From a bacterium (GTDB lineage Bacteria > Patescibacteriota > Minisyncoccia > UBA6257 > JAGOQP01): a DNA stretch of 55,099 nucleotides. Below the pieces are notes generated by a model, which had not been told where the DNA came from, did no database searches, and saw only the letters and a list, made by a program, of their open reading frames with translations. The translations under genes were made by a program, and so were the position numbers. How positions within the stretch are numbered: the stretch's first letter is position 1; each line of letters starts with the position of its first letter. The stretch spans positions 1 through 55,099 of the forward strand of contig JAJXZH010000024.1 in the NCBI GenBank assembly GCA_021780155.1, in the 5' to 3' direction. Below are positions 3,740-4,195 of the stretch, in pieces.

Positions 3740-4195
3740 ATGAAAATTAACATATATAATATATTTATGGATAATATAGAGATTGGAAAAATTGGAGAAA
3801 ATATCGCCTGTGGATATCTCGTGAATAACAATTATAAAATAATTGAACGAAACTATAGAGAAAAAATGGGAGAAATTGATGTTATCGCAAAATCTCCAGA
3901 TAAAACCTTGACTTTTATTGAAGTCAAAACAATCTCTGTGCCAAACTTGCCTGTGGAAAAGAGTCCGGCAAGTTATCCACACCTTGCCGGACTCAAATAT
4001 AATCAAGATGACGATTTTTTATATCCGGAAGATGAAATGAGTGTTTCAAAGATAAAAAAATTTAGACGGATCTGCCAATGGTATGCCAATCTAAAACCCA
4101 AACTGGTTAATAATAAAGGATATCAACTTGACGCAATAACTATATTATTGGATAATAATAAAAAAACTTTAATAAAGCACTATAAAAATATATAG
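3740..4195 (+). CDS. yraN: YraN family (UPF0102) putative endonuclease; likely start may be the ATG at 3767
   Basis: GKIGENIACGYLVNNNYKIIERNYREKMGEIDVIAKSPDKTLTFIEVKT signature. Confidence 0.85.
   Translation: MKINIYNIFMDNIEIGKIGENIACGYLVNNNYKIIERNYREKMGEIDVIAKSPDKTLTFIEVKTISVPNLPVEKSPASYPHLAGLKYNQDDDFLYPEDEMSVSKIKKFRRICQWYANLKPKLVNNKGYQLDAITILLDNNKKTLIKHYKNI

What the first reader, a model, noticed from the sequence alone, without database searches (positions are those of the whole stretch)
3950..3994. Hairpin inside yraN whose loop is a perfect DnaA box
Seen: GAGTCCGGCAAG-TTATCCACAC-CTTGCCGGACTC. A 12-bp perfect stem built from two inverted copies of the dispersed repeat flanks a loop containing TTATCCACA (3973-3981), the canonical DnaA box. 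DnaA-box-like TGTGGAAAA (from about 3951) and TGTGGATAT (about 3810) are also nearby. The protein acquires KSPASYPHLAGLK between the IEVKT block and the KIKKFRR block of YraN, so the element looks like an in-frame insertion (analogous to Rickettsia palindromic elements). Inference: a mobile DnaA-binding hairpin near parS could titrate DnaA or act in origin architecture.
Basis: partly seen in the sequence, partly recalled or inferred. Interest (0 to 1): 0.8.

Follow-up and report, generated by a model that had tools for sequence, protein, structure and literature searches.

The report
Replication-initiator sites hidden inside a gene
In a family of tiny uncultured bacteria, a protein-coding gene next to the chromosome's segregation site (parS) carries two binding-site sequences for the replication starter protein DnaA at a fixed distance, kept letter for letter by selection on the DNA; the hairpin noticed here is one of them flanked by two copies of a short repeat that recurs at parS and in one regulator gene.

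Summary
The hairpin is real: 12-bp perfect arms at 3961-3972/3983-3994, with the perfect DnaA box TTATCCACA (3973-3981) in the loop, inside yraN. It is not a dispersed mobile palindrome: it is the only such hairpin in the 708-kb genome.

The conserved object is the DnaA box. All 10 family genomes with yraN carry a second box (TGTGGATAT, 3809-3817) exactly 164 bp upstream of TTATCCACA (one mismatch in G001). No other genome of the order (233) has the pair at one mismatch or fewer. The box codons are invariant in 10/10, while nearly all other conserved residues vary in codon. G007 has lost yraN but keeps both boxes beside parS.

The stem arms belong to a short repeat (AGTCCGGCAA and variants) concentrated at the parS/yraN region and inside a DeoR-type HTH gene (30768-31682). 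There it is read in up to three frames, and its spelling largely tracks the parS copies genome by genome.

Strand-corrected GC skew places oriC near dnaN/dnaA, about 5 kb away, so this is probably not oriC. Best explanation: a centromere-side DnaA-binding element, like DnaA binding at Caulobacter parS, flanked by sites for a second, unidentified protein. DnaA binding and function are inferred, not shown.

The parts
3740..4195 (+). yraN (UPF0102); likely real start at 3767 (142 aa, as in the database copy P0057)
   Evidence: PF02021 E 6.5e-17; NCBIfam YraN; P0057
3806..3819 (-). DnaA box 1: invariant GCCTGTGGATATCT containing box ATATCCACA (3809-3817, minus strand)
   Evidence: identical in 10/10 family yraN genes, codons GCC TGT GGA TAT CTN fixed
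3971..3980 (+). Invariant AGTTATCCAC core of DnaA box 2 (TTATCCACA, 3973-3981); box 2 starts exactly 164 bp after box 1
   Evidence: 10/10 for AGTTATCCAC, codons AGT TAT CCA fixed; spacing 164 bp in all ten
3952..3960 (-). Third, weaker box TTTTCCACA, 21 bp before box 2; a perfect box (TTATCCACA) in G001
3961..3972 (+). Left hairpin arm = repeat unit AGTCCGGCAA(G), forward
3983..3994 (-). Right hairpin arm = repeat unit, reverse
3552..3567 (.). parS TGTTTCACGTGAAACA
   Evidence: sequence; conserved beside yraN in the family
3606..3621 (.). parS
3686..3701 (.). parS
3297..3306 (-). repeat unit
3328..3337 (-). repeat unit
3638..3645 (+). repeat unit core TCCGGCAA
3672..3681 (-). repeat unit
3716..3725 (+). 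repeat unit
30768..31682 (+). DeoR-type HTH gene whose linker region carries the same repeat units
   Evidence: PF08220 E 9.8e-9; orthologs in 11/13 family genomes
31275..31455 (+). Array of 7 TCCGGCAA units (6 of them AGTCCGGCAA) in the HTH gene, read in two frames (SPA and SGK)
8510..9631 (-). dnaN; nearby replication-origin candidate region
   Evidence: skew switch
9797..11176 (-). dnaA, with domain IV box-reading residues (RDHTT..H) conserved
   Evidence: TIGR00362; alignment to B. subtilis DnaA 8btg

Best explanation
The element is a DnaA-binding pair built into the coding sequence of yraN, 100-250 bp from the parS cluster and about 5 kb from dnaA/dnaN. Shown here: two DnaA-box sequences at fixed spacing are kept by selection on the DNA, and they outlive the gene in one genome. 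Also shown: the hairpin arms are two copies of a short unit that is concentrated at this centromere region and in one HTH gene. Inferred: DnaA binds the pair and acts on the centromere (timing of segregation or initiation), as DnaA bound at Caulobacter parS does. Also inferred: the flanking units are sites for a second protein, most simply the HTH protein itself, which would help or hinder DnaA at box 2. The cruciform itself need not form; the inverted repeat can be two protein sites facing each other.
For: Boxes 164 bp apart in 10/10 family yraN genes. The exact-spacing search finds the pair at 0-1 mismatch in 10 of 13 family and 0 of 233 other order genomes; a search with the spacing 3 bp short finds none in yraN. 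Codons at both boxes are invariant in 10/10, while nearly every other column conserved in 9-10 sequences uses two or more codons. The residue after SYP switches between H and Q while the box's CA is kept. In 68 database YraN proteins, CGY and SYP occur together in 20, always 54 residues apart; CGY alone 4, SYP alone 6, neither 38. G007 lost the yraN reading frame but keeps TGTGGATATC and TTATCCACA(C) beside parS. DnaA domain IV keeps the box-reading residues. parS sites lie only beside yraN in G005, G033 and G098, and beside the two boxes in G007. Units are concentrated at the parS region and the HTH gene.
Against: No binding data. Two or three boxes are few for a strong DnaA site. The pair is limited to one family, so any function is lineage-specific or met otherwise elsewhere in the order. 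In G001 box 2 has one mismatch (TTATCCACT), although a perfect box sits 21 bp away. In G007 the spacing is 141 bp, not 164. G003 and G009 lack both a detectable yraN and an exact parS; G009 (90% complete) still has the HTH gene.
Confidence: 0.6

Rival explanations
1. The yraN/parS segment is the chromosomal replication origin itself, or one half of a bipartite origin, embedded in a gene.
For: Uncorrected cumulative GC skew has its minimum at the yraN region in the complete genome G005 (124,771) and within 1 kb in G001 and G010. In G005 no box within 1 mismatch lies in the dnaA upstream or dnaA-dnaN intergenic DNA.
Against: Correcting for gene strand, the switch lies 4-6 kb away at dnaN/dnaA (pooled over 8 contigs; 39 deviance units worse at yraN). 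It stays 1-8 kb away when pbp, dnaA and dnaN are all dropped (9.3 units worse). Most relatives have boxes upstream of dnaA and between dnaA and dnaN. In G098 (f27) the minimum is 10 kb from yraN.
Confidence: 0.15
2. The boxes titrate or regulate DnaA (like B. subtilis oriC-proximal DnaA-box clusters or E. coli datA) with no role in the centromere; closeness to parS follows only from closeness to oriC.
For: Ori-proximal boxes outside oriC are known regulators (PMC5295017).
Against: Fixed 164-bp spacing and a parS-adjacent position kept even after loss of yraN ask for more than titration; only two or three boxes are present.
Confidence: 0.2
3. The conserved letters reflect YraN protein or mRNA constraint, and the DnaA-box match is incidental.
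For: The translated residues ACGYL and SYP are themselves constant within the family.
Against: Synonymous sites are frozen at just these codons; ordinary YraN has ACEYL or ACRYL and no SYP; the boxes survive without the gene in G007.
Confidence: 0.03
4. The stem units are a selfish or mobile palindromic repeat that happened to land on both sides of a DnaA box (Rickettsia-palindromic-element-like).
For: Units vary in number and position between sister genomes; several reading frames are used.
Against: Not dispersed: 12 of the 17 AGTCCGGCAA copies in the genome are in two clusters, and the same two places are enriched in relatives. Single hairpin copy. Unit spelling largely agrees between the two places in each genome.
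Confidence: 0.1

Closest known systems
DnaA binding at the Caulobacter centromere parS (Mera et al. 2014, as described in PMC6667618 and PMC6399470)
   Same: DnaA-box sequences at the parS region, kilobases from oriC; initiator placed at the centromere
   Different: Here the boxes lie inside a protein-coding gene under codon freeze, at fixed 164-bp spacing, one flanked by inverted repeat units; different phylum; binding not tested
B. subtilis oriC-proximal DnaA-box clusters (Okumura 2012, described in PMC5295017)
   Same: DnaA boxes outside oriC in the origin region
   Different: Those act redundantly by sequestering DnaA; here a single pair with rigid spacing sits next to parS
Vibrio cholerae chromosome II rctA/parS2 (described in PMC6399470)
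   Same: A small ORF region combining an initiator-binding site with a ParB site
   Different: The initiator there is RctB, not DnaA, and the ORF is thought non-functional; YraN is a conserved protein
Rickettsia palindromic elements (recalled, not looked up)
   Same: Palindromic DNA read in-frame inside a gene
   Different: Single copy here; a roughly 10-bp unit; the box is ancestral to the family

Membership tests
DnaA box | Match to TTATNCACA | tested here: met
   box 2 perfect in 9/10 family yraN genes, one mismatch in G001; box 1 ATATCCACA has one mismatch
DnaA box | Cognate DnaA keeps the box-reading residues of domain IV | tested here: met
   RDHTT..H aligned with B. subtilis DnaA 8btg; which residues read the box is from own knowledge
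DnaA box | Bound by DnaA | not testable with these tools
   needs footprinting or ChIP
oriC | Replichore switch at the site | tested here: not met
   strand-corrected switch at +4 to +6 kb, +1 to +8 kb in the most conservative test; the uncorrected minimum is at the site in G005
oriC | AT-rich unwinding element with DnaA-trios | not tested
   not examined systematically
parS-adjacent DnaA-binding locus (Caulobacter type) | DnaA boxes within a few hundred bp of parS | tested here: met
   nearest parS about 100-175 bp from box 1 in the yraN-bearing family members, about 65 bp in G007
parS-adjacent DnaA-binding locus (Caulobacter type) | DnaA-dependent centromere movement | not testable with these tools
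   uncultured organism
Rickettsia-palindromic-element-like mobile repeat | Many dispersed copies of the palindrome | tested here: not met
   one copy in 708 kb
Rickettsia-palindromic-element-like mobile repeat | Absent from homologous genes of close relatives | tested here: not met
   hairpin in G002 and G001 too; box 2 in 10/10 family yraN genes

The most novel reading that the evidence does not exclude
The CGGCAA-type units are operators of an undescribed DNA-binding system. A DeoR-type HTH protein carries an array of its own sites inside its own coding sequence and has a second array at the parS/yraN centromere region, where two sites bracket a DnaA box. It would thus couple its own level, centromere structure and DnaA binding. 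Site and protein would diverge together across the order (TCCGGCAA, TCTGGCAA, TTCGGCAA, TGCGGCAA spellings), with the coding arrays preserved through up to three reading frames.
Probability: 0.35. Interest if true: 0.85.

Novelty: new variant of a known kind. Interest (0 to 1): 0.72.

Why it matters
Replication control in Patescibacteria/CPR appears nearly unstudied: literature searches here found no paper on their origin or centromere architecture. This gives a concrete, testable element: a pair of initiator sites beside the centromere so strongly selected that they fix codons in an unrelated protein gene and survive its loss. It also offers a candidate partner (the HTH protein) whose putative sites appear in the same spelling at both loci in most genomes, so binding can be tested in vitro without culturing the organism. 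It adds a likely independent case of DnaA placed at a centromere, so far known to me mainly from Caulobacter.

Tried and rejected
(1) 'oriC embedded in yraN' was my first reading, from the raw GC-skew minimum in G005. It was given up when the gene-strand-corrected change point moved to dnaN/dnaA.
(2) A DNA-uptake-sequence reading of the unit: TCCGGCAA is only weakly over-represented genome-wide in G005 and G098 and is concentrated at two loci in the family contigs.
(3) The first exact-spacing search was mistyped with 152 instead of 155 N; it serves as an off-by-3 control.
(4) The search for related loci in genome contigs returned only two distant Clostridia hits.
(5) parA/parB were not found among the ten window proteins scanned.
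(7) Literature searches for Patescibacteria/Paceibacterota origins, yraN with oriC, and DnaA boxes in coding sequence gave nothing relevant.

Full report
Observation. The hairpin GAGTCCGGCAAG-TTATCCACAC-CTTGCCGGACTC lies at 3961-3994, slightly right of the stated start, in-frame in yraN. Its DNA fold is far better than shuffles (z -6.8). It is the only GTCCGGCAA-loop-TTGCCGGAC hairpin in the 707,709-base genome. The closest named YraN relatives in the database are Candidatus Paceibacterota, and genome sizes of 0.5-0.7 Mb fit that group; the taxon itself is inferred.

The DnaA boxes are the conserved object. In all ten family genomes with yraN, box 1 (ATATCCACA on the minus strand) and box 2 (TTATCCACA) start exactly 164 bp apart. 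A search of 246 order genomes for this spacing found the pair at 0-1 mismatch in those ten and nowhere else in yraN or outside the family (G004 has one further 1-mismatch match on another contig). A mistyped search with the spacing 3 bp short found only scattered 1-2-mismatch matches, none in yraN. The protein segment after box 2 varies freely in length.

DNA-level selection. Among about 45 columns of the family YraN alignment whose residue is shared by 9-10 sequences, the codons GCC TGT GGA TAT CTN and AGT TAT CCA are fixed in 10/10. Outside the boxes only one 2-fold Phe column is fixed in ten; three further 2-fold Tyr/Lys columns are fixed within the nine sequences that share the residue. 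The residue after SYP alternates between H and Q, keeping the CA of the box; G001 has L and a mismatched box there, but a perfect box 21 bp upstream. Across 68 database proteins, CGY and SYP co-occur in 20, always 54 residues apart; ordinary YraN has neither and lacks a linker insert of roughly 20 residues. These sequences are related, so the Fisher P of 2e-8 is only indicative.

A natural gene loss. G007 (98% complete, same family) has no yraN match. Between its parS sites and yebC there is no yraN reading frame, but CTGTGGATATCC and TTATCCACACTTTTCCGGAAA remain in the same order and orientation, 141 bp apart. This is one genome.

The arms. The unit AGTCCGGCAA occurs 17 times in the genome: 6 in the parS/yraN region, 6 within 180 bp at 31.3 kb, 5 scattered. 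The second cluster lies in the linker of a DeoR-type HTH gene (PF08220), with orthologs in 11 of 13 family genomes. There the units run in one orientation with few exceptions (two minus-strand copies in G008) but in two or three reading frames (SPA, SG[KN], VRQ) in most genomes. The same two places stand out in G002, G007 and G010; in G005 the parS region is the densest window of the chromosome. Spelling agrees between the two places: only TCCGGCAA in G000 and nearly so in G001, G002 and G010; TCTGGCAA plus TTTCCGGAAA and no TCCGGCAA in G012; mixtures in G011 and G007. G004 agrees only in part. Other families of the order carry repeated CGGCAA-core words in this HTH gene, often in several frames. 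In G012 and G011 box 2 sits between TTTCCGGAAA copies, the same layout with a different spelling; in G005 and G008 no such hairpin is present.

Where is the origin? The uncorrected cumulative skew of the complete G005 has its minimum at 124,771, next to yraN. A model with gene strand and replichore effects at third codon positions moves the switch to +4 to +6 kb, at dnaN/dnaA, pooled over eight contigs, and to +1 to +8 kb when pbp, dnaA and dnaN are dropped. DnaA boxes also lie upstream of dnaA and between dnaA and dnaN in most relatives. I therefore read the yraN pair as centromere-side, not as oriC.

Mechanism. DnaA domain IV keeps the residues that read the box. DnaA binds the Caulobacter centromere and is proposed to act in starting segregation (PMC6667618, PMC6399470); B. 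subtilis has oriC-proximal box clusters that hold DnaA (PMC5295017). By analogy, the pair most likely recruits DnaA at parS. The flanking units look like sites of a second protein, with the HTH protein the simplest candidate. Binding, partner and effect are all inferred.

Caveats. The genomes are mostly draft. Orthologs come from 13 held genomes of the family, two of which (G003, G009) gave neither yraN nor an exact parS. Unit statistics use words chosen after inspection. The change-point model depends on few genes near the site.

Noticed in passing
window 30768-31682; L200-L232: DeoR-type HTH gene with arrays of a short CGGCAA-type word in its coding linker, read in two or three frames in many orthologs across the order; the word's spelling differs by lineage.
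   Followed up: partly
L084 (G010:C9), near positions 14017 and 14423: In G010 a parS site with its four flanking units (two forward, two reverse) appears duplicated about 406 bp apart.
   Followed up: no
window 3400-3540 and aligned family loci: Sequence upstream of parS shows repeated blocks such as TCACCTATNGC...AAACCTA, partly conserved across the family; function unknown.
   Followed up: no
L144 (G006:C18:6507-9162): dnaA-dnaN pair inverted in G006 relative to the other family members.
   Followed up: no
window 36062-36093 and 48205-48237: Other strong inverted repeats (arms 13-14 bp, loops 4-7) with A/T-rich ends, probably intrinsic terminators.
   Followed up: no
L075-L078 (G005:C1:460001-540000): About 72 kb of the G005 chromosome between 460 and 540 kb reads as N (withheld), so genome-wide counts there are lower bounds.
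   Followed up: no
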